Origin: a virus
Reading direction: 5' to 3' (one strand)
Virus record (IMG/VR): IMGVR_UViG_3300036846_000502
Location: 1 to 41,351 of that record
Length of the DNA stretch: 41,351 nt
Positions 12,286-21,764 of the stretch are shown here, in pieces (position 1 is the first letter of the stretch; each line of letters opens with the position of its first letter). Position numbers and translations under genes: made by a program. The notes beneath the pieces were generated by a model. That model made no database searches. It was not told the DNA's origin and saw only the letters and a program-made list of their open reading frames with translations.

Positions 12286-14721
12286 TTATTGTGGAACGGC
12301 GGCGCCTGGCGCAAACCAATAGCCGGTGCCGCCCTTACGGCTCGCCGCCTGGTTAGCGCGATGGAAACTCTGCCGGTAATTCGGATCGACCAGCGACTGC
12401 AGGGTGTCCCACAGGAACCGGTCGACCGCGAGCTTGGTGTACCACGTGTTCGGCGTCCACCGGCGGCCGGCGGCGATCATGTCCTCGGCGGTGTTGGCAG
12501 TGGCGCGCCGGCCTTGAGCGTCAAACAATTCGTGGCGCACCGGCGCGGCCACCGCTTTGCCAATGTCGCCAACGAGGCCGCCGACTGTGCCGCCGGCGGC
12601 GCCGCCGATCGCCCCGGCATTACCGGTGAACGCTTCGGATAAAAGATCGCCATAGACGCCGCCGACGCCGCCCTTGGCAAAGGCATGCATCCAGAATTTC
12701 GGGTCGTACATGTCGAGCGGGTTCTTGCCGGCGAGGACGGCGGCAGCTTGCATGGCCACGGCACCGGCCGCTGTTGAGAGAAGCGTAAAGGCAATGCCGC
12801 GCGCGATGCGCTCGCCTGGCGTACCCTCGTAAAGGATCCGCATCAAATGCGTCGACATGCGCTCAAGCGCGAACTGCTTGTATTGGGCGAAGCCGAGTTG
12901 CGCCTCGCCGGCGAACGTGCCGGGGGTCGCACCGCCGCGGGCGATGGCGCGGGTGCGGGCGTCGGGCTGGTGTGCCATATAGCTCGAACGTTCTTGAACG
13001 GCGCGCTGCAGCCGCTCGGACAGTTCGCGGTCGGTCCGGGTGAGCTCCGGCAGATTGACGTAAGCCGCGCCATTGGCCGAAACGTCGGGCGCGATCGCTC
13101 TGATCTTATTCCACTGCGCTTCATTGATGCCGTATTGCGCCAGGAAATTGTCGCGGATATGCGGGTCGAGCTTTTGCCACGGCGTGTCGGCAACCTGGGC
13201 GAGCTTGTGAAAGTAACCCATTTGGGTGCCGAGCCTTAAGTTCTCGGTCCACCAATTGGCGCCGGTTGCCCGGATGACAAAATCTGGCACCGCCCGCGCG
13301 ATACCGGAATAGTTGATCTCGTCCTCGTAGCGGCGAACATTATTCTGCACAAAATCCTTGTAGCTGTGCGCCGCGATCTCAAGGTGCGCCGCCTCTTGCC
13401 GCGTCGTCTTGCCGTCAAAGGTGTGCCGCATGATGTCGCCGAACGACATGCCGTCGTGATGAGCGGCGATGAACGTCGCCGCCATATCGCTCGGCACGAT
13501 GTTGACCGGCAGATTGCGCAGCGCCGCGGCGCCGAGGAGTTGCCGGGTGCCCGACATGCGCCGCGCCCACACCTCATTGCCAACCTGGGTGCCCTTGCCG
13601 CTGACCTCGTTGAAGGTGTTGCGCGCAACGAGCTCGCTATCAAACCAGCGCAATCCTCTCGCCAAGGCCTCCGTTGGGTTCTTCTCTTTCGCCAGCCGCA
13701 CCGCGGCCTCGAAAGCGCCTTGCGGATTGGGGCCAAGCGTTTCGAGCGATGCAATCTCCTTTGCCATCTGGCTCATGTGTTGGGTGATCACTTGCATGAT
13801 CTCGTTGCCGGCGCCGTATTTTGCTTGCATCCGCAGCCAGGCGTCGGCACCGGCCTTGCCCGGTTGAAACTCGAACGTCCGGATTTCTTTGGAGAACGGC
13901 GTCATGGTGCCGCCCTCATATTTGATGTCGGCGTAAGCTTTTTTCAGAATGGCGTCGGTGCGCGACGCAGTCGCATAAAAGCGGCCCGGCCCGGCTTCTT
14001 TGTCGATCAGCTTGACGGCGCCGCTGTCGACCACTTCACGCCAATCTTTAACAAACTCGGCTTCGCTGAATTTCTCGACGCGGCGCGTGGACCACGGTTG
14101 TCCGATGCGCCAATTTTCGTTCGGCTCAAATTCCTTGCCGGCGAGTTTGGCGCGTTGCTCGGCGGCCAGGCGCGCATCGTTGACCCCGGCCGCCACGGCT
14201 TTCGCCGCCTTGTTGCCGGTATCGACGCCAAACAATTCATGGACAACATCGGGCGCCTGCGCGGCACCGCGGGCTTGGAATTTTTCGAGCTCGGGGCCGA
14301 GCTTGGCAAACAGCGATCGTTCAATGACGCGGGCATTGCTGTCGACGCTGCCGCGCGTAAAAATCGGATGCTCGGGATTTGAGCGGCGCAGTGCATTGAG
14401 CCGATTATCGCCGAGCAAAGTATCCTTCGACAACAGATTGACCACGCCGAGCATGCCGCCGCGCGGATCCTCGACAACCCGTTGTTCGATGTCGCGCCAG
14501 GTCCGCACCCCGGCGGCGATCTTGAGTTGCCGGCCCGCGGCCTTGTCGCGCATTTGCTTCGCCGCCTGTAGGGCCGCCGCGGCGTCGGCGCTGGCCGGTC
14601 CCATGCTGCGCGAATATTCGGCTTTGGACCGCTTGAACGCTTCGAGCGCCTCGTCGCCGATCGCGCGGGTGATGGCGCCGGTGGTTACGAGCTTGCCGAT
14701 ACAGTCTTGCACGTCGGCCAT
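12286..14721 (-). CDS. Large internal virion protein (T7 gp16-like C-terminal role)
   Basis: 811 residues starting MADVQDCIGKLVTTG. Mostly helical, with a Gly/Ala-rich hydrophobic stretch near residue 680 (FTLLSTAAGAVAMQAAAVLA) and another glycine-rich run (GAIGGAAGGTVGGLVGDIG). The C-terminus NYRQSFHRANQAASRKGGTG matches the ends of large ejected proteins of T7-like phages. Such proteins leave the head first and build the channel across the envelope. It shares one base with the upstream gene (TAATG). Confidence 0.7.
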   Translation of the reverse strand: MADVQDCIGKLVTTGAITRAIGDEALEAFKRSKAEYSRSMGPASADAAAALQAAKQMRDKAAGRQLKIAAGVRTWRDIEQRVVEDPRGGMLGVVNLLSKDTLLGDNRLNALRRSNPEHPIFTRGSVDSNARVIERSLFAKLGPELEKFQARGAAQAPDVVHELFGVDTGNKAAKAVAAGVNDARLAAEQRAKLAGKEFEPNENWRIGQPWSTRRVEKFSEAEFVKDWREVVDSGAVKLIDKEAGPGRFYATASRTDAILKKAYADIKYEGGTMTPFSKEIRTFEFQPGKAGADAWLRMQAKYGAGNEIMQVITQHMSQMAKEIASLETLGPNPQGAFEAAVRLAKEKNPTEALARGLRWFDSELVARNTFNEVSGKGTQVGNEVWARRMSGTRQLLGAAALRNLPVNIVPSDMAATFIAAHHDGMSFGDIMRHTFDGKTTRQEAAHLEIAAHSYKDFVQNNVRRYEDEINYSGIARAVPDFVIRATGANWWTENLRLGTQMGYFHKLAQVADTPWQKLDPHIRDNFLAQYGINEAQWNKIRAIAPDVSANGAAYVNLPELTRTDRELSERLQRAVQERSSYMAHQPDARTRAIARGGATPGTFAGEAQLGFAQYKQFALERMSTHLMRILYEGTPGERIARGIAFTLLSTAAGAVAMQAAAVLAGKNPLDMYDPKFWMHAFAKGGVGGVYGDLLSEAFTGNAGAIGGAAGGTVGGLVGDIGKAVAAPVRHELFDAQGRRATANTAEDMIAAGRRWTPNTWYTKLAVDRFLWDTLQSLVDPNYRQSFHRANQAASRKGGTGYWFAPGAAVPQ

Positions 14722-17261
14722 TAGGCGGCCTCCGCGGCAACCGGCGCGCCGCAGGCAGCGAGTTGCTCGGCCGCGGCTTTATAGCCGTCGACCTCGCGCA
14801 AGGCGCCCGCGAGACTGACCGGCTGTTCGTCGATGTTGGGGATTAAGTTTTCGGGGGCTCGGACGGGGGGGGCTCGTCCTTCGGCGCCGGCGATGGCGCC
14901 GGGCGATCTGAGCCCTTCTGCTTCTCCAAAGATTCTTTCAGGCCCTCCGCCAGGTCTTTGAGCCAAATATCGTCCATTTCGGACCATGTCGGCGAGCGGC
15001 CCTTCGCCGCCGCGAACAACGGGAGTTTCGCCAGATGTATCGATGTCGGCAAAATCACGGATCAAGCCTTTCTCTCTTAGTACATATGCAGTCGGGCCGG
15101 TTTTTGCAGCGGCTTCAAGCAAATAGTCCGGTTCCACAAGCCGCCCGGTGTTAATCAAGCGTTGGATATTGCGCCGCGACGCCACCTCGGCGCCGGCTGA
15201 AACATGCATCAAATCAACGGTATATCCCCACTGTTTTAAAAGTTGCATAACATTTTGCAAGTGTTCGGGAGTTGCGCCGACTGTGGGAATGACCAAATTG
15301 GCCCCGCGCGGCGCTAATTTATTGGCCGTGATTTCCCTGGCGAGGCGCGAGCTTTCGGCATGAACCTTTAAGCTGCCGAGCCCGCCCTGATATTCGGGAA
15401 TGACGAGCTTGGCCTCGTCGGGATCGGGGATCGCGGCGCGCAGCTCTCGCGCCAGCGGCTCTGCAAATGTCGATTTGCCTGATGCCGGCGGCCCGGTCAC
15501 AAGCACGGCGCGGCGCTCGTTGGCAACGCCTTCGGGCCCGGCGAAGGTTTCAAAGCGCCCCATCAGTCGATCCGCGGCGTTGTCGAACCCCTGTACCGGC
15601 ACGCCATCAAAATTATAGACCCGCTTGGCGCGCCATTCCGGGTTGGCAAAATCCTCGGCGGTGCCGGTCGGCTCTTTCGCCAATTCCTGAGCGCGGCGCA
15701 GATAGTCTTGAACAAACGGGTGATTGATAATTTGCTCGCGTGGCGCCTTTTGCTCGATCAGTTGTTGCAATTCTTCTTTTGAACCGGCTTCCGGCGCAAT
15801 CTGCGCCGCATAAGGCCGCATGTGCTCGACGGCTAATGCCTGTGCTTCCTCGGCCGTAAACCCGGCCGCGCGGTAATCGGCGACCGTTTGCAAAAGCTCG
15901 CGATCGAGATCGGCGCGCATGGCACCTTCGAACTCGGGCGTGGCTTTGGTTAGCGGCGTCACCGGCACCGGCTGCGGTTCCGCCGGCGCCTCGATCCTTC
16001 TCGGCGCGTCGGCGACCTGGCGCGGGCTCATGTGCAGATCGCGCAGCATGTCTTGCGCTTCCTCGGGCGAGGCCGCCATCAACTTGTCGGTCACGCGCGC
16101 GGCTTCCTCGGCCGGCATGGCGTAAGGCGCGGCGGCGGTGCGCGCTCTTTGCTGCACGTCGGCGCTGACAGCTTGCTTCGCCATTTCGGCTTCCGCTTCG
16201 GCGGCGGTGCGGGCAAATGGGAGCTCCGGTGCTGGCCCGGTCGGCATCGCGGCCCGCGCTTGCGCCGCCGCTGTGGCCGCGGCTTGGGCTTGCGTGCGCG
16301 CCGCTTCGGCCGGCGCCATCGTTGCGGTGGCGTCGCGCTCCGGCGTGATGAACTTCGACACGTCGACCGGATAGCTGCGCAGAATGTCGTCGCTCGCCTT
16401 CGACAAGGCCTGCGCGTGCGCGACCTCGCCTTCGGGGCCGGGATAGACATTCGTGGCGATGGTGTTGGCCTGGCCGGTGACAACATTGCCGGCCTGCTTG
16501 ACGCTTTCCGGCCAGGCGCCGGTCCGCACCCGCGACCACGCGTCGGCCACACCGCGAAAGATCAGGCCGCCGATCGCGGTCTCGCCGGTCGCCGTGGCGA
16601 TGTCGGCGATCGGCTGGCCCGATGCTACGTAGCCGGGCTCGACCTCCTCGCGGTACGGCGCTTTCAACGCGGCGCTGGCGGCGGCGCCGGCGCCGCCGAT
16701 GACACCCCAACGGATGGCGTTGGCAACGATGCCAAGGCTTTCCTCCGGCGCGACCGGCAATAGCGCCAGGTTGATTGGATCGGCAAATCCCGTAACGATG
16801 CCACCGGCGATCTTGCCAAGCGTGGCGCCCGGCCCGCGCTCGCGGGCCATCGTCGTTTGAAAATCGGCGTCAGCCTTGCGCCGCTTGGCAACAGCGTTTT
16901 GTTCGAGCTCGTCGGCCGTCATCGGCTGCACATCGAACGTCGGATTTTTTTGTTTGAACGCCGCGAGCTTGTCATTGGTTTGCGCCAACAGTGATTGCGC
17001 GGCTGGCATGATACCGATGCCGCTGGTGTCGCCATAGTCGAGCTCGGGCCCCAGGTTGGGGCCGCCCCGTTGTTTGATATTATCGAGGTAATCTTGCAGC
17101 GCGCTAAAGCGATCGTGCTCGCCAAAATAATCTTGCGAAAAAATTTCGTTTTGCGACCATTGCGCGGCGAAGGTTTCGCCGAATGTCGTCGGCAGATCCG
17201 GCCGTTCGTTCGGCTGCGGTCGCGCCGACAGATCCTCGTCCTGTCCAAACAGGTACGACAT
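14721..17261 (-). CDS. Internal virion protein with Zeta-toxin-like kinase domain
   Basis: 846 residues. The N-terminal 250 residues are typical of podovirus internal virion proteins (FGETFAAQWSQNEIFSQDYF; glycine/alanine-rich segments). A long helical, Gln/Ala-rich middle follows. Near residue 588 is a Walker A, TGPPASGKST, then LVIPEYQGGLGSLKVHAESS and RGANLVIPTVGATPEHLQ: the Zeta-toxin/kinase order. Zeta toxins phosphorylate UDP-GlcNAc and block wall synthesis. After the kinase domain, bases about 15000-14870 have poor codon use in this frame (see findings). Co-located with the transglycosylase gene. Confidence 0.75.
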   Translation of the reverse strand: MSYLFGQDEDLSARPQPNERPDLPTTFGETFAAQWSQNEIFSQDYFGEHDRFSALQDYLDNIKQRGGPNLGPELDYGDTSGIGIMPAAQSLLAQTNDKLAAFKQKNPTFDVQPMTADELEQNAVAKRRKADADFQTTMARERGPGATLGKIAGGIVTGFADPINLALLPVAPEESLGIVANAIRWGVIGGAGAAASAALKAPYREEVEPGYVASGQPIADIATATGETAIGGLIFRGVADAWSRVRTGAWPESVKQAGNVVTGQANTIATNVYPGPEGEVAHAQALSKASDDILRSYPVDVSKFITPERDATATMAPAEAARTQAQAAATAAAQARAAMPTGPAPELPFARTAAEAEAEMAKQAVSADVQQRARTAAAPYAMPAEEAARVTDKLMAASPEEAQDMLRDLHMSPRQVADAPRRIEAPAEPQPVPVTPLTKATPEFEGAMRADLDRELLQTVADYRAAGFTAEEAQALAVEHMRPYAAQIAPEAGSKEELQQLIEQKAPREQIINHPFVQDYLRRAQELAKEPTGTAEDFANPEWRAKRVYNFDGVPVQGFDNAADRLMGRFETFAGPEGVANERRAVLVTGPPASGKSTFAEPLARELRAAIPDPDEAKLVIPEYQGGLGSLKVHAESSRLAREITANKLAPRGANLVIPTVGATPEHLQNVMQLLKQWGYTVDLMHVSAGAEVASRRNIQRLINTGRLVEPDYLLEAAAKTGPTAYVLREKGLIRDFADIDTSGETPVVRGGEGPLADMVRNGRYLAQRPGGGPERIFGEAEGLRSPGAIAGAEGRAPPVRAPENLIPNIDEQPVSLAGALREVDGYKAAAEQLAACGAPVAAEAA

Positions 17262-20200
17262 CAGGGGCCGATCCCCAATGCCGGCGCTGAGTAGCTAAAC
17301 GGCGCCGGTTGCCGGCCGCGCAGATCGAGCACAAATTTGTTTGGCCGTTCGGTGTTGGTGTTCTGATAGGCATAGATCGGTGCCGCCTGGTCGCGGCCGA
17401 GCGTGACATAGTACCGGCCGGGCCCATCGGCGTTTTGCAATTGTGCCTGGCCGCGCAGATAGGCGGCGCTGATCGGCGCACCGTTGAGCGAGGTGACGCC
17501 GGCAAGATCGTTGTCGGTCAGGCTGGCAAGCACGTTGTCGAATTGCGTTTGCGGCATGCCGCGCGCCGGCGCGATGAACTTGGCGCCGTTCATCGACAGC
17601 ACGCCGCCGGTCACGTCGTCGACCGCCTTCTGTACGCGATCGGCCGAATAGTTCATGTCGCCGGATTGCGCCGACAGATAGGCATAACGCGCCCGCACCA
17701 TTTCGCCCATCGTGGCGTAGTCGCCGGTCGGGTCGGTGCGCGCGGCGCCCATCGGAAACACCGTCGCCGGCAACGCCTTGTTGAAATCGTCGGTGAAGGT
17801 TTCGCCTTGCGGGTTCTTGGTGCCGAAGGCCTTGTCGACATCAAACTTGCCGCCTTTCATCATGGCGAGCCCTTGGAATATCGACGTGGCGACTTCGGGC
17901 GAACTGCGCATCATCGAGCCGGCGGCCGCCTCGGCGGTGTCGGCCGGATCATTGCCGGCGATTTTTTTCAGCGTCGGGCCGCGCACGTCCTCCGGCAAGG
18001 TAGCGAGCGATTGATAAATCCGCGCCTTCGCCGCCGGATCGGGATTAGCGAGTTGCCCCTTGATCTGATCGACATCGGCCTGGTCGAGCGCCGCGACCGG
18101 CTGGCCTTGCCAGGTCTGATTGGCCCACCGCGCGATCGGCACGCGCTGCTGCAGGCCGGCGGTGAGTTTGGCCGGATCGGAAAAATCCAGCGGCGCCGGC
18201 GTCGCCAGCCGGCCGCGCGAATAAGAGACCGCGGTCGAGATCGGGTCTTTGTCCATGCCCTCGCGGATTTTCTGCGTGATCTCGGACAGGTTCTTGGCGA
18301 CCTCGCCGTAGCCGGCACCGAACTCGCCGGCGGCGCCGCGCGATTGGATCTCCGTGATCCGCGCTTGCTGTTGGGCGAGCGTGCCGCCGGGTTGTTGCGC
18401 CTCGATCCGCATCAGCGCCACGTCGTGAGAAATCTGCGCGTTCAAGCCAAAATCGTCATTGCGGTTGGCCCGATCGGCAACGTCGTTGATCACCTTGTCG
18501 GACGGCGGAATGCGGGTCTTTTGAAAATCCTCGTTGATGGTTTTCCATTCGGCGCGCAAATCGCGCTGGTCGGCCGAGGCATTCGCCACTTGCAGAAACA
18601 AACTCGCCGCCGGCGTCGGGATCTCGGCGTGCGCTGCCATGCCGGCATAGGCCAGCGGCGTCGTACCGTAAGCGTCGGCGACTTGGATCCGGCCGCCGGA
18701 TTGCAGCGCGACGCGGGCGCCTTGGGCGCCGGCCAGATGCATCATGGTGTAGAGCCCGGCGCGGGTGATCGGCACACCGCCGACCGTCTGGCCTTCGTAC
18801 TTGTCGAGTCCGAGCGTGGAGATCTCCTGATCCATGCGCGCGGTATGGGCGTCGTAAGCGGCCTTTTGCGCCGCCGGATTTTGCAGAAAGTCCGACAGCG
18901 TTTTGACCTCGGGATGGCCGGGAACGTTGAACGTGCCGGTCCATTTGCCCGGTTCGAATTTTGATGTTTGGTTCCACGTTTGCAGATTTTCATTCGGCCC
19001 GGGCTTGTAGATGCCGAGATCGGTGAGCCGCGGCGCGCCGAACTGATAGAGGCCAGCGAAGCCGAAATTGTTGACCGCGGTCGGGTCGCCCGAGCTTTCA
19101 TGTTGAATAAGCCGCGCCTCGGCTGCAGTGGCCGGGGTGACGCCGCCGGCGAAGGTGTTGCGTTGCGCGTCCTGGGTGTCGAGCGATTGCCGGCCGTAAT
19201 CGCCGCCGCCCTTCTCGATGATCTTGACGCGGGCGAGAAAACTCGACGCCTCGCCCGGATAGCCGGTGCGCCGTAACACATCGATCACATTGCCGGCCTG
19301 ATCTTGCACGTCCTTGGCGTTGCCGCCGAGCTTCAGATAATCGAGCACGCTCTCGCGGGCCTGCCGCGCCTCGAAAGCGTCCTGTTTGCGCAGCGCATCC
19401 TCCGAGCGGATTTCGCCAGCGACGTAGTTGTAGATCTTGTGCCGTTCGGCGTCTTTGAGGTTAAGCGTCGGGTCGGTCAGGATCGAGCGCGCGGCATTGA
19501 GCGTCGTCACCGCGGCGCTGCTCGGATTGTCCGAGTTCTTGTACATTTCGTCGATGAAATGGTGCGCAAGGCCGTTCTCCTTCAATTTCGCCGTCAACTG
19601 GTCCTGATCGTAATCCGCGGCCTGCTGAGAATACGCAAAAGACGGATTGGCAACTTTCTGATTGGTGAGTTGTCGCCACTTGTCGTTGGCGAGCTGAAAC
19701 GGCGCCGGCCAATTGTCGGGGTCTGGATCTTTGAGCGCACCGGCCCGCGCGCCGGCAACCAGCGTGTCCTGAGCGTCCTTGAGCCCGTTGTCGATGTCGC
19801 GCTCGGCCGAGCGAAGGTCGAGCTTGCGCTTGTCTTTGGCGAGCTCGCGGAAATTATAGGTCGTTGTCGCATCGATGGCGCGGCCGAGCGTCACCCCGAC
19901 CTCGGGCGCGCCGAGATCGGCATAGCGTTTCATTACGCTATCTTTATACGCGTTCGCCGCTTGCAGATAGGCTTGCGGGTTGTCGACAAATTGCTGGCGC
20001 AATTGGATGTCGGCATCCTTGGCGGCGCCCTCGGCGGACGCCAGTGCAGCCGTCTTGACCGCGTGCTCGTAAGCCAAAGACGCCGGGCCGATGATCGGCG
20101 CCTTGGCGATTTGCACGTTGCCGGCCTCGTCGGTGGTGACGGCCTGGGTGCCGGCACGCTCGGCGGTAGTGGTGGCGATGTCGGTCGCCGCCTCGCCGGT

Positions 20201-20314
20201 TTTCCTCAAGGCATTGGCGAGCTCGGTGTAGGGCTGCGCAACCTCGCCCGGCGATACGTCGCGGCTCGGGGCTCGCGAGGTGTCGAGCGAGTATTCGGCG
20301 AGAAGATCAGGCAT
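17261..20314 (-). CDS. Internal virion protein with lysozyme/transglycosylase-like domain
   Basis: 1017 residues from MPDLLAEYSLDTSRAPSRDV; the ATG at 20312-20314 is preferred because the longer frame overlaps the upstream gene. A helical first part reaches about residue 380. Around 400-560 lies a lysozyme-like region: EARLIQHESSGDPTAVNNFG, FAGLYQFGAPRLTDLGIY, then GGVPITRAGLYTMMHLAGAQ; the Glu in QHESSGD is the probable catalytic residue. This parallels T7 gp16, whose transglycosylase thins peptidoglycan during DNA entry. Overlaps neighbours by 8 bases and 1 base. Confidence 0.75.
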   Translation of the reverse strand: MPDLLAEYSLDTSRAPSRDVSPGEVAQPYTELANALRKTGEAATDIATTTAERAGTQAVTTDEAGNVQIAKAPIIGPASLAYEHAVKTAALASAEGAAKDADIQLRQQFVDNPQAYLQAANAYKDSVMKRYADLGAPEVGVTLGRAIDATTTYNFRELAKDKRKLDLRSAERDIDNGLKDAQDTLVAGARAGALKDPDPDNWPAPFQLANDKWRQLTNQKVANPSFAYSQQAADYDQDQLTAKLKENGLAHHFIDEMYKNSDNPSSAAVTTLNAARSILTDPTLNLKDAERHKIYNYVAGEIRSEDALRKQDAFEARQARESVLDYLKLGGNAKDVQDQAGNVIDVLRRTGYPGEASSFLARVKIIEKGGGDYGRQSLDTQDAQRNTFAGGVTPATAAEARLIQHESSGDPTAVNNFGFAGLYQFGAPRLTDLGIYKPGPNENLQTWNQTSKFEPGKWTGTFNVPGHPEVKTLSDFLQNPAAQKAAYDAHTARMDQEISTLGLDKYEGQTVGGVPITRAGLYTMMHLAGAQGARVALQSGGRIQVADAYGTTPLAYAGMAAHAEIPTPAASLFLQVANASADQRDLRAEWKTINEDFQKTRIPPSDKVINDVADRANRNDDFGLNAQISHDVALMRIEAQQPGGTLAQQQARITEIQSRGAAGEFGAGYGEVAKNLSEITQKIREGMDKDPISTAVSYSRGRLATPAPLDFSDPAKLTAGLQQRVPIARWANQTWQGQPVAALDQADVDQIKGQLANPDPAAKARIYQSLATLPEDVRGPTLKKIAGNDPADTAEAAAGSMMRSSPEVATSIFQGLAMMKGGKFDVDKAFGTKNPQGETFTDDFNKALPATVFPMGAARTDPTGDYATMGEMVRARYAYLSAQSGDMNYSADRVQKAVDDVTGGVLSMNGAKFIAPARGMPQTQFDNVLASLTDNDLAGVTSLNGAPISAAYLRGQAQLQNADGPGRYYVTLGRDQAAPIYAYQNTNTERPNKFVLDLRGRQPAPFSYSAPALGIGP

Positions 20315-20813
20315 TGAGAATATCCAAAGGCGGACCCACCGGGTTTGGCGAGCCGCCGAGGCCGAACAGGTTTGGATTAGTCTTGCCGATCGCGGTCGCC
20401 ACATCGGCGCCGGCGGTGAGGTAACCCATGTTCATGGCGAAATCGCCGGCGCTGCGCAGATAGGCCGCGTCGGTCAGGTCTGCGGTTTGTTGCGCATAGA
20501 TATTGCCGACCTTGATCGCGCGCTCCTGATTGGACACCTCGGTCGCCCGCGCGCGCAGCGCCATCGTCGTCGGCGAGGTTGGGTCGGTGTGGCCGGCGGC
20601 GCGGATCACGTCGATATTGCCGAGCGTGGTCGCCAGCTTGTCAGTCAGCGAGGCGTTGGTTTCGGCCGCCGCGGCGCCGGCATATTCCGCTTTGGTCTTA
20701 TCGACATTGGCTTGAAACTGATCGGCCGCCTGGGTGCCCTTGGCTTGCTCGACCGCGCTAAACGCGGTGGCGCCAGCGCCGGCGATCGCTGCCACGGCTG
20801 TTGTCACCGCCAT
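20307..20813 (-). CDS. Small internal virion protein (T7 gp14-like)
   Basis: 168 residues from MAVTTAVAAIAGAGATAFSA. A hydrophobic Ala/Gly N-terminus is followed by a helical Ala/Gln/Asn-rich body (NQERAIKVGNIYAQQTADL). Size, composition and position immediately upstream of the two giant internal proteins match gp14-type core proteins, which insert into the outer membrane during ejection. Start at 20811-20813. Confidence 0.65.
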   Translation of the reverse strand: MAVTTAVAAIAGAGATAFSAVEQAKGTQAADQFQANVDKTKAEYAGAAAAETNASLTDKLATTLGNIDVIRAAGHTDPTSPTTMALRARATEVSNQERAIKVGNIYAQQTADLTDAAYLRSAGDFAMNMGYLTAGADVATAIGKTNPNLFGLGGSPNPVGPPLDILNA

Positions 20814-20814
20814 G

Positions 20815-21282
20815 TTAGTTTCCCTTTGCCAGCGTGTAGACAATATCGGTCGCGACAAATCCCAAACGCTTCAAGATCGCCGGATGCTCGTGGCCGATCT
20901 TTTCGCGCACCGTGAGGAGCTCGGCGCCGCACTCGACCGCGGCGATGCACGCCGCTTTGATCAATTGGTAGCCGTTGAAGCCGCGCCGATAGTCCGGCAG
21001 CAAAAAATGCAAATCCTCCTCGGCGACCAGCACGTGCTGGTAGTGGGTGTGACGGACCAAAAACCACAGGAAATAACCGACCAGCTTGCCGCCATCGCGC
21101 GCCGTCACCAACAGCAACTTTTTCTGATCGGCCAATTCACCGTAAACGTCCTCGTCGGGATTGAGCCGCATCAAATGTTTGTTCTTGGCAATCTCATGCC
21201 AGTGGGCAACGAGAAGCGGCGTCGCTTCGTCGTATACTTGCCGGAACGGTTCGACCGCAAAGGCCAGGCGCGTCGTAAGCAT
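20815..21282 (-). CDS. GNAT-family acetyltransferase-like protein
   Basis: 155 residues from MLTTRLAFAVEPFRQVYDEA. GNAT features: KKLLLVTARDGGKLVGYFLW (beta4), LHFLLPDYRRGFNGYQLIKA (acetyl-CoA loop, R-G-x-N-G variant) and ERLGF-like LKRLGFVATD at the end. Similar genes lie in this slot in many podoviruses, between tubular and internal virion proteins. Substrate unknown. TAATG overlap with the upstream gene sets the start. Confidence 0.75.
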   Translation of the reverse strand: MLTTRLAFAVEPFRQVYDEATPLLVAHWHEIAKNKHLMRLNPDEDVYGELADQKKLLLVTARDGGKLVGYFLWFLVRHTHYQHVLVAEEDLHFLLPDYRRGFNGYQLIKAACIAAVECGAELLTVREKIGHEHPAILKRLGFVATDIVYTLAKGN

Positions 21283-21764
21283 TAAGCGGTCCTCCGGCTG
21301 GCCCGCTGTTCGATCGGGCTCGCCCAACGACAATTTGATGGTTTGTAATTGCCGTTGACATCAAGGCGATCAATGGTGTGCGCTGGCGATGGTTTGCGCC
21401 CCATGTCGGCAAGGAACGCCGCATAATCGCGCCAACGATCGCAAACCTTAATTCCCCGAGCGCCATAGTAAACAAAGCGATTGTTGCGGGGATTAGTGCA
21501 TCGCTGGATCATCGCGCACCAAGTCCGATATTCTGCCGTGTAGTCACGGCCGCGAGTATCTCCGTGCGATGTGTGATTGCCTCTCGCGCGTAAGCAGCCA
21601 CAGCTTTTTACTTTTCCACGGTTAAGAAGGCTGGTCTGCGCGCGGAAAACCATTCCGCAATTGCATTTGCAAAGAAGCAAACGCCGTTGCTGCTTGTCTC
21701 GCGCGCCATCATCCGCGACGACAACCAGCATTTCAAAACGTTGCCCTATCTCGATTGTTTTCAT
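21282..21764 (-). CDS. HNH-type homing endonuclease-like protein, copy 1
   Basis: 160 residues. N-terminal zinc-like motif (LLLCKCNCGMVF ... KSCGCLRARG), then EYRTWCAMIQRCTNP, YYGARGIKVCDRWRDYAAFL and SNCRWASPIEQRASRR with an IDRLD motif before it. This combination marks a family of free-standing phage HNH endonucleases thought to be mobile. A homologue lies on the opposite strand at 29589-30107. Here it is in line with the late operon, between tail-tube and acetyltransferase genes. Confidence 0.75.
   Translation of the reverse strand: MKTIEIGQRFEMLVVVADDGARDKQQRRLLLCKCNCGMVFRAQTSLLNRGKVKSCGCLRARGNHTSHGDTRGRDYTAEYRTWCAMIQRCTNPRNNRFVYYGARGIKVCDRWRDYAAFLADMGRKPSPAHTIDRLDVNGNYKPSNCRWASPIEQRASRRTA

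What the first reader, a model, noticed from the sequence alone, without database searches (positions are those of the whole stretch)
14721..17261. Zeta-toxin-like kinase inside an ejected internal virion protein
A P-loop TGPPASGKST and following Zeta-type motifs lie near residue 588 of an 846-residue internal virion protein. Zeta enzymes phosphorylate UDP-GlcNAc and stop peptidoglycan synthesis. Delivered with the DNA, such a domain could act on the cell wall or on a nucleotide sugar at the moment of infection. No antitoxin gene is evident next to it.
Basis: partly seen in the sequence, partly recalled or inferred. Interest (0 to 1): 0.7.

Follow-up and report, generated by a model that had tools for sequence, protein, structure and literature searches.

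The report
Kinase cassette in phage ejection protein
This short-tailed phage carries a Zeta-toxin-shaped kinase inside a protein predicted to be shot into the bacterium with its DNA; related phages hold the same kinase, a different nucleotide-modifying enzyme (a predicted alarmone synthetase), or nothing at that spot, so it looks like a swappable injected weapon whose target is probably not the cell-wall precursor first proposed.

Summary
ORF 14721-17261(-), 846 aa, carries a Zeta-type P-loop kinase (Pfam Zeta_toxin 51 bits, cut-off 22.3). An AlphaFold model (pLDDT 93.6) matches zeta toxin best in the PDB (E 7.6e-10), then PezT and AvrRxo1. P-loop K596, general base D615 and R701 are intact; K596, D615, H634 and E636 are invariant in 49/49 sequences. 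There is no antitoxin: both flanking genes overlap it by 1 nt. The cell-wall interpretation is not supported. The UNAG-contacting residues other than the base are gone (T118->V, R120->A, E100->R, T128->V; nucleotide-binding E116->P), and relatives lie in viruses of haloarchaea. The wider finding is that the host protein occupies the epsilon15 gp16 position among ejection proteins. In 78 related contigs it has a conserved body, a variable cassette and a conserved tail. The cassette is this kinase (21), a Tas1-like alarmone-synthetase fold (44), or absent/short (9); 4 are unresolved. So the kinase is one alternative cargo of a probably injected protein. Zeta in polyvalent and MuF proteins is published; the ejection-protein cassette slot appears new. 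In passing: one cysteine near the slot protein's C-terminus (78/78 non-redundant) and one near the next protein's N-terminus. Biochemistry and injection are inferred.

The parts
14721..17261 (-). Slot protein (epsilon15 gp16 position), 846 aa, carrying the kinase cassette
16446..17201 (-). N-terminal body, residues 21-272, profile match to slot proteins of related marine viruses (group gC)
   Evidence: hhalign probability 95.0, E 3.6e-8
15792..16445 (-). Ala/Glu/Pro-rich linker, residues 273-490, no relatives found
   Evidence: sequence; no match
14931..15791 (-). Kinase cassette, residues 491-777: helical N-terminal extension plus Zeta-type kinase
   Evidence: shared as one block with L002, 54% identity; AF2 pLDDT 93.6
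15066..15512 (-). Pfam Zeta_toxin match, residues 584-732
   Evidence: 51.1 bits, E 1.5e-13
15471..15494 (-). Walker A, G590-S597, catalytic K596
   Evidence: K596 invariant 49/49
15417..15419 (-). D615, equivalent of zeta D67 (general base)
   Evidence: invariant 49/49; mapping
15273..15287 (-). P659-A663, in place of zeta E116-R120 (nucleotide- and UNAG-binding motif lost)
   Evidence: mapping; PMC3062530, PMC6362051
15159..15161 (-). R701, equivalent of zeta R158 (48/49 conserved)
14724..14930 (-). C-terminal tail, residues 778-846, with the protein's only cysteine, C837
12286..14721 (-). Downstream pilot/ejection protein (phrog_684, epsilon15 gp17-like), only cysteine C7
   Evidence: phrog_684 E 1.5e-94
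17261..20404 (-). Upstream ejection protein with weak SLT transglycosylase match (epsilon15 gp15 position); true start probably at 20314
   Evidence: phrog_27932 E 8.5e-13; SLT below cut-off; homology to phage QH protein E 3e-8

Best explanation
The ORF is the middle ejection protein of a podovirus (epsilon15 gp16 position). Between its N-terminal body and its C-terminal tail it carries an exchangeable effector cassette, here an active Zeta-superfamily small-molecule kinase. Shown by computation: the fold, the intact catalytic residues, the syntenic place, and replacement of the cassette in relatives by a Tas1-like alarmone-synthetase fold or by nothing. Inferred: the protein is packaged and ejected with the DNA; the kinase reaches the cytoplasm (it needs ATP) and at the start of infection phosphorylates a soluble nucleotide-type metabolite other than UDP-GlcNAc (for instance NAD-like or another nucleotide or nucleotide sugar), to alter host metabolism or blunt defence. 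No antitoxin is needed because the protein is made late, in cells that will lyse.
For: Zeta family score and PDB ranking zeta > PezT > AvrRxo1 > others. K596, D615, K618, H634 and E636 invariant in 49/49 divergent sequences, R701 in 48. Kinase module immediately upstream of a P0002 homologue in 21 contigs found through the kinase and in 21 of 78 contigs found through P0002 (a few contigs are in both sets). In relatives the body (about 720 aa) and last ~50 aa are conserved while the middle is kinase, unrelated sequence or nothing: L088 vs L089 are 68% identical over the body, 72% over the tail, with different middles. The unrelated middle is an alarmone-synthetase domain: Tas1 E 1.6e-16 by profile and E 8.2e-8 by fold, with K66/K70, D80/R83 and E135 invariant. 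The same kinase module sits in giant polyvalent proteins with ddrB-ParB, SNF2, LPD22 and LPD38 domains, a class argued to be injected (PMC5512222). UNAG contacts lost (PMC3062530).
Against: No virion proteomics or injection data for any member. The substrate is a guess; the alternatives NAD, nucleotides and nucleotide sugars are not separated. P0001's body matches relatives only at profile level and over 250 residues, and its linker has no relatives. No isolated phage with kinase plus slot was found, so all slot examples are uncultivated viral contigs. The P0002-anchored sample is redundant and mostly of one lineage type.
Confidence: 0.68

Rival explanations
1. It is a true UDP-GlcNAc kinase that blocks or weakens peptidoglycan synthesis at infection, as the first reader and Iyer et al. 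2017 suggest for polyvalent proteins.
For: Zeta fold and catalytic base present; an adjacent ejection protein may also act on peptidoglycan (weak SLT); published proposal (PMC5512222).
Against: Four UNAG-contact positions changed, one to the very Thr->Val that detoxified PezT (PMC3062530); E116 replaced; family present in haloarchaeal viruses.
Confidence: 0.13
2. It is a polynucleotide-type kinase that repairs or modifies 5' ends of the incoming DNA or of host RNA.
For: Bacterial Pnkp1 is the next enzyme family by profile (E 1.1e-6); zeta and PNK share fold and base; PHROG polynucleotide kinase hit E 1e-4.
Against: Zeta, PezT and AvrRxo1 rank above PNK by fold (E 1e-9 to 1e-6 versus 2e-5), and zeta above Pnkp1 by profile.
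Confidence: 0.12
3. The domain is catalytically idle and serves as a structural or ATP-binding part of the ejection machine.
For: It sits in a virion-type protein; many slot proteins do without it.
Against: Invariance of K596, D615 and E636 across 49 sequences and replacement by another ATP-using enzyme fold argue for catalysis.
Confidence: 0.07

Closest known systems
Zeta/PezT toxins of epsilon-zeta toxin-antitoxin systems (PF06414; PDB 3q8x, 1gvn, 2p5t)
   Same: Fold, P-loop, general-base Asp, D-x-x-K, R158-equivalent
   Different: UNAG-binding residues and E116 replaced; P-x-x-G motif; no antitoxin; fused into an ejection protein with an extra ~90-residue N-terminal extension
AvrRxo1 (NAD 3'-kinase, Zeta superfamily)
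   Same: Third structural match; delivered effector; zeta-like kinase with a non-UNAG substrate (papers PMC5491322, PMC5087710)
   Different: Secreted by a bacterial type III system with its own partner protein; sequence not compared here
Polyvalent proteins (Iyer et al. 2017, PMC5512222)
   Same: Late-gene context, effector domain predicted to be injected; the same kinase module occurs in true polyvalent proteins L002, L024, L048, L054 and L064
   Different: P0001 has only one recognisable enzymatic domain; the kinase sits in a defined slot of an epsilon15-type ejection protein rather than with MuF, methylase or helicase domains
MuF polymorphic toxins of temperate phages (PMC5576092, PMC12226406)
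   Same: Virion-associated carrier with variable effector, including (p)ppApp synthetases
   Different: No MuF domain; cassette is internal, followed by a conserved tail; podovirus ejection protein as carrier; no immunity gene
Tas1/Apk1 alarmone synthetase (type VI effector, PDB 6ox6)
   Same: Best match of the alternative cassette
   Different: Only the cassette of relatives, not of this window; no immunity gene sought in those contigs

Membership tests
Zeta toxin superfamily (kinase domain) | Significant match to PF06414 and best fold match to zeta/PezT | tested here: met
   51.1 bits vs 22.3; 3q8x E 7.6e-10, TM 0.57-0.61
Zeta toxin superfamily (kinase domain) | Walker A Lys, general-base Asp, R158-equivalent | tested here: met
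   K596, D615, R701
UNAG-kinase toxins (zeta/PezT proper) | GTxR(T) and E100/T128 UNAG contacts | tested here: not met
   G117->T, T118->V, R120->A, E100->R, T128->V
UNAG-kinase toxins (zeta/PezT proper) | Adjacent antitoxin gene | tested here: not met
   flanking genes overlap by 1 nt on both sides
UNAG-kinase toxins (zeta/PezT proper) | Phosphorylates UDP-GlcNAc, toxic to cells | not testable with these tools
   needs biochemistry
Podovirus ejection proteins, epsilon15 gp16 position | Synteny: tail tube genes, transglycosylase-type protein, slot protein, phrog_684 protein | tested here: met
Podovirus ejection proteins, epsilon15 gp16 position | Sequence homology of body to other slot proteins | tested here: met
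   P0001 21-272 vs group gC, prob 95, E 3.6e-8; gC vs SI2 E 1e-68; gC vs QH/K294 E 2.5e-10; no match of P0001 or gC to the phiV10 protein itself
Podovirus ejection proteins, epsilon15 gp16 position | Present in virion and ejected | not testable with these tools
   no proteomics
Polyvalent proteins | At least two biochemically disparate effector domains in one polypeptide | tested here: inconclusive
   one enzymatic domain found in P0001
MuF polymorphic toxins | N-terminal MuF domain | tested here: not met
   no MuF match

The most novel reading that the evidence does not exclude
A broad lineage of epsilon15-like short-tailed phages uses the middle ejection protein as a polymorphic effector carrier: a conserved body, an exchangeable nucleotide-modifying enzyme (non-UNAG Zeta kinase or Tas1-like alarmone synthetase) and a conserved tail whose single cysteine forms a disulfide with the single N-terminal cysteine of the next ejection protein once in the oxidising periplasm, joining the two chains end to end while cargo is passed into the cytoplasm.
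Probability: 0.33. Interest if true: 0.88.

Novelty: new variant of a known kind. Interest (0 to 1): 0.68.

Why it matters
Injected phage effectors are known from few carriers (T4 Alt, P1 Dar proteins, MuF proteins, N4 polymerase). A swappable cassette in the ejection proteins of a common podovirus type would add a carrier with cultured, genetically tractable relatives (epsilon15, phiV10, VP2-like phages) and makes two questions testable: which host metabolites are attacked in the first minutes of infection, and how the trans-envelope channel is held together. It also warns against naming every phage Zeta domain a cell-wall toxin.

Tried and rejected
Family hit alone as proof: PF06414 rings in all 14 control genomes, so structure and profiles were added. 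ParB-like domain in the SI2 slot protein, suspected by eye: no Pfam match and hhalign probability 0.1; dropped. Homology of P0001's first 490 residues by phmmer: none; found only by profile. An earlier apparent N-terminal match probably came from including part of the cassette extension in the query. Fourteen short P-loop proteins are unrelated small kinases. Plasmid search with the P0001 module: no match; a relative in Rhodococcus plasmids was found with L044 and not followed. First genome scan found nothing; second gave 9 loci, mostly MAGs, not studied further. Zeta kinase in isolated phages with this slot: not found. Pfam on the alternative cassettes: nothing; solved with PDB profile and fold searches. 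Papers on cysteines or disulfides in podovirus ejection proteins: none relevant in the library.

Full report
What was checked. The ORF is real: 14721-17261 minus, 846 aa. Its neighbours overlap it by one base on each side, so no antitoxin gene fits beside it. Pfam calls Zeta_toxin at 51.1 bits over residues 584-732, with AAA_33 second. As PF06414 also rings in all control genomes, I built a family alignment and compared structures.

Relatives. A two-sequence profile of the kinase core found 45 viral contigs. With PSS2 and two haloarchaeal viruses, 49 sequences share the P-loop lysine, D615, K618, P622, E623, H634 and E636 without exception; R701 in 48, R697 in 46, R707 in 45. This conservation over low overall identity argues for an active enzyme. 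All 38 members scanned score as Zeta_toxin. By profile the best relevant solved proteins are zeta (E 7.9e-10) and Pnkp1 (E 1.1e-6); the top row, adenylate kinase 9, owes its score to several short P-loop matches. An AlphaFold model (pLDDT 93.6, pTM 0.90) matches zeta bound to UNAG first (3q8x, E 7.6e-10), then PezT, then AvrRxo1, with polynucleotide kinases far lower.

Substrate. In zeta, UNAG is held by D67, T118, R120, T128 and E100 (PMC3062530), and E116 and R171 are nucleotide-binding (PMC6362051). Aligning the 1gvn chain to the family profile maps D67 to D615, but T118 to V661, R120 to A663, T128 to V671, E100 to R642 and E116 to P659. Thr->Val at the T118 position made PezT non-toxic (PMC3062530). 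The family as a whole has P-x-x-G there (45/49 for P, 47/49 for G). So kinase chemistry is probable, UNAG improbable. The same pattern, base kept and UNAG residues lost, led others to propose a different substrate for a mycobacterial homologue (PMC6362051), and AvrRxo1 phosphorylates NAD (PMC5491322, PMC5087710). The kinase also sits in head-region proteins of haloarchaeal viruses, together with MuF-like, portal and protease genes; that haloarchaea lack murein is general knowledge.

Where it sits. Downstream is a phrog_684 virion protein (E 1.5e-94) with relatives in 94 phage records, including epsilon15 gp17-type pilot proteins. Upstream is a protein with a weak SLT match, like epsilon15 gp15. 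P0001 thus occupies the epsilon15 gp16 place. Its residues 21-272 match, at profile level, the body of slot proteins of marine viruses (prob 95, E 3.6e-8), which in turn match SI2 (E 1e-68) and VP2/VP5-like proteins (E 2.5e-10), both without the kinase. Epsilon15/phiV10 slot proteins correspond only by position.

Exchange. Of the kinase-found contigs, 21 have a P0002 homologue directly downstream. Starting instead from P0002, 80 contigs were fetched; 78 have a readable slot protein, 21 of them with the kinase. Against a kinase-bearing reference, the others align over about 720 residues of body and, in most, the last ~50 residues, with a gap exactly over the cassette. The replacement is one family in 44 contigs; it is absent or under 50 residues in nine, a 75-residue stretch of unknown kind in three, and one contig is cut. 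Pfam does not know the replacement, but its profile hits Tas1 at E 1.6e-16 and its AlphaFold model (pLDDT 94.7) hits Tas1 first (E 8.2e-8), then an exported alarmone synthetase and other small alarmone synthetases. Invariant K66, K70, D80, R83 and E135 fit a synthetase site. The kinase of P0001 groups with kinases of giant polyvalent proteins (L002, L024, L064; SH-aLRT 93), not with the marine slot kinases; the slot label needs 6 changes, at least 2 forced by well-supported branches (quick tree, long branches). So the cassette seems to move between carriers.

Mechanism. Ejection proteins of this class leave the head and cross the envelope (PMC8954989). A kinase needs ATP, so it can act only in the cytoplasm: of the newly infected cell, or of the cell that makes the virion. 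Because the carrier gene lies among late virion genes, and relatives swap in another nucleotide-using enzyme, I think the first is likelier: an injected small-molecule kinase. This step is inferred.

Relation to the known. Zeta-like kinases in polyvalent proteins and fused to MuF are published, with the suggestion that they weaken the wall (PMC5512222); MuF carriers with (p)ppApp synthetases are published (PMC5576092, PMC12226406). New here, as far as the searches show: an epsilon15-type ejection protein as carrier, an internal cassette with a conserved tail, alternation of the two enzymes in one slot, and the non-UNAG signature of the family.

Cysteines. Every slot protein, with or without cassette, has one cysteine within 12 residues of its C-terminus: 78 of 78 non-redundant ones; eight show further cysteines, all at the extreme N-terminal end of the stop-to-stop frame, where they may precede the real start. 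Every downstream protein with a complete N-terminus has exactly one, at residues 4-12 (18 in one) of about 800; epsilon15 gp16 has C629 of 634 and gp17 has C5, while T7 gp15/gp16 and P22 gp20/gp16/gp7 have none. In this window they are C837 of 846 and C7. A disulfide between the chain ends in the periplasm is the simplest idea; it is untested. In T7 the gp16 N-terminus stitches gp15 C-termini in a published model (PMC8954989), which fits the geometry.

Limits. No biochemistry, no proteomics, mostly uncultivated contigs of one broad lineage, redundant sampling, and a substrate that I cannot name.

Noticed in passing
window 14751-14753 (C837 of the slot protein) and 14701-14703 (C7 of the next protein): One cysteine near the C-terminus of the slot protein and one near the N-terminus of the next protein, in every related phage examined (78/78 non-redundant slot proteins), including epsilon15 and phiV10; absent from the T7 and P22 counterparts. 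Suggests an end-to-end disulfide.
   Followed up: yes
L089, L093, L094, L129 and others (middle of the slot protein): The replacement cassette is a Tas1-like alarmone-synthetase fold not recognised by Pfam.
   Followed up: yes
window 20307-20858 minus and 20314: A 183-aa frame here (likely start at its internal Met 16) looks like a small internal virion protein; the 1047-aa ORF upstream of the slot protein probably starts at 20314 rather than 20404.
   Followed up: partly
window 21282-21764 minus: HNH endonuclease gene (phrog_374, E 6e-57) between the tail-tube and ejection-protein genes.
   Followed up: no
L024 6874-18399: A 3842+ aa polyvalent protein with the same kinase, ddrB-ParB, SNF2 helicase and an intein splicing domain between helicase motifs.
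   Followed up: no
BFVD A0A6J5LTH6: Second-best viral fold match is an 1134-aa phage protein named anti-CBASS Acb1, hinting that the kinase fold may be combined with an anti-defence domain.
   Followed up: no
L084 3308-6178 (Alcaligenes phage Piluca): The slot protein of this cultured phage carries a ddrB-ParB domain (E 1e-40) and a weak SLT match: a further possible cargo type.
   Followed up: partly
L085 2587-3129 and L086 1229-1819: Epsilon15 gp14 and T7 gp14 both begin Met-Cys, the only cysteine in each.
   Followed up: no
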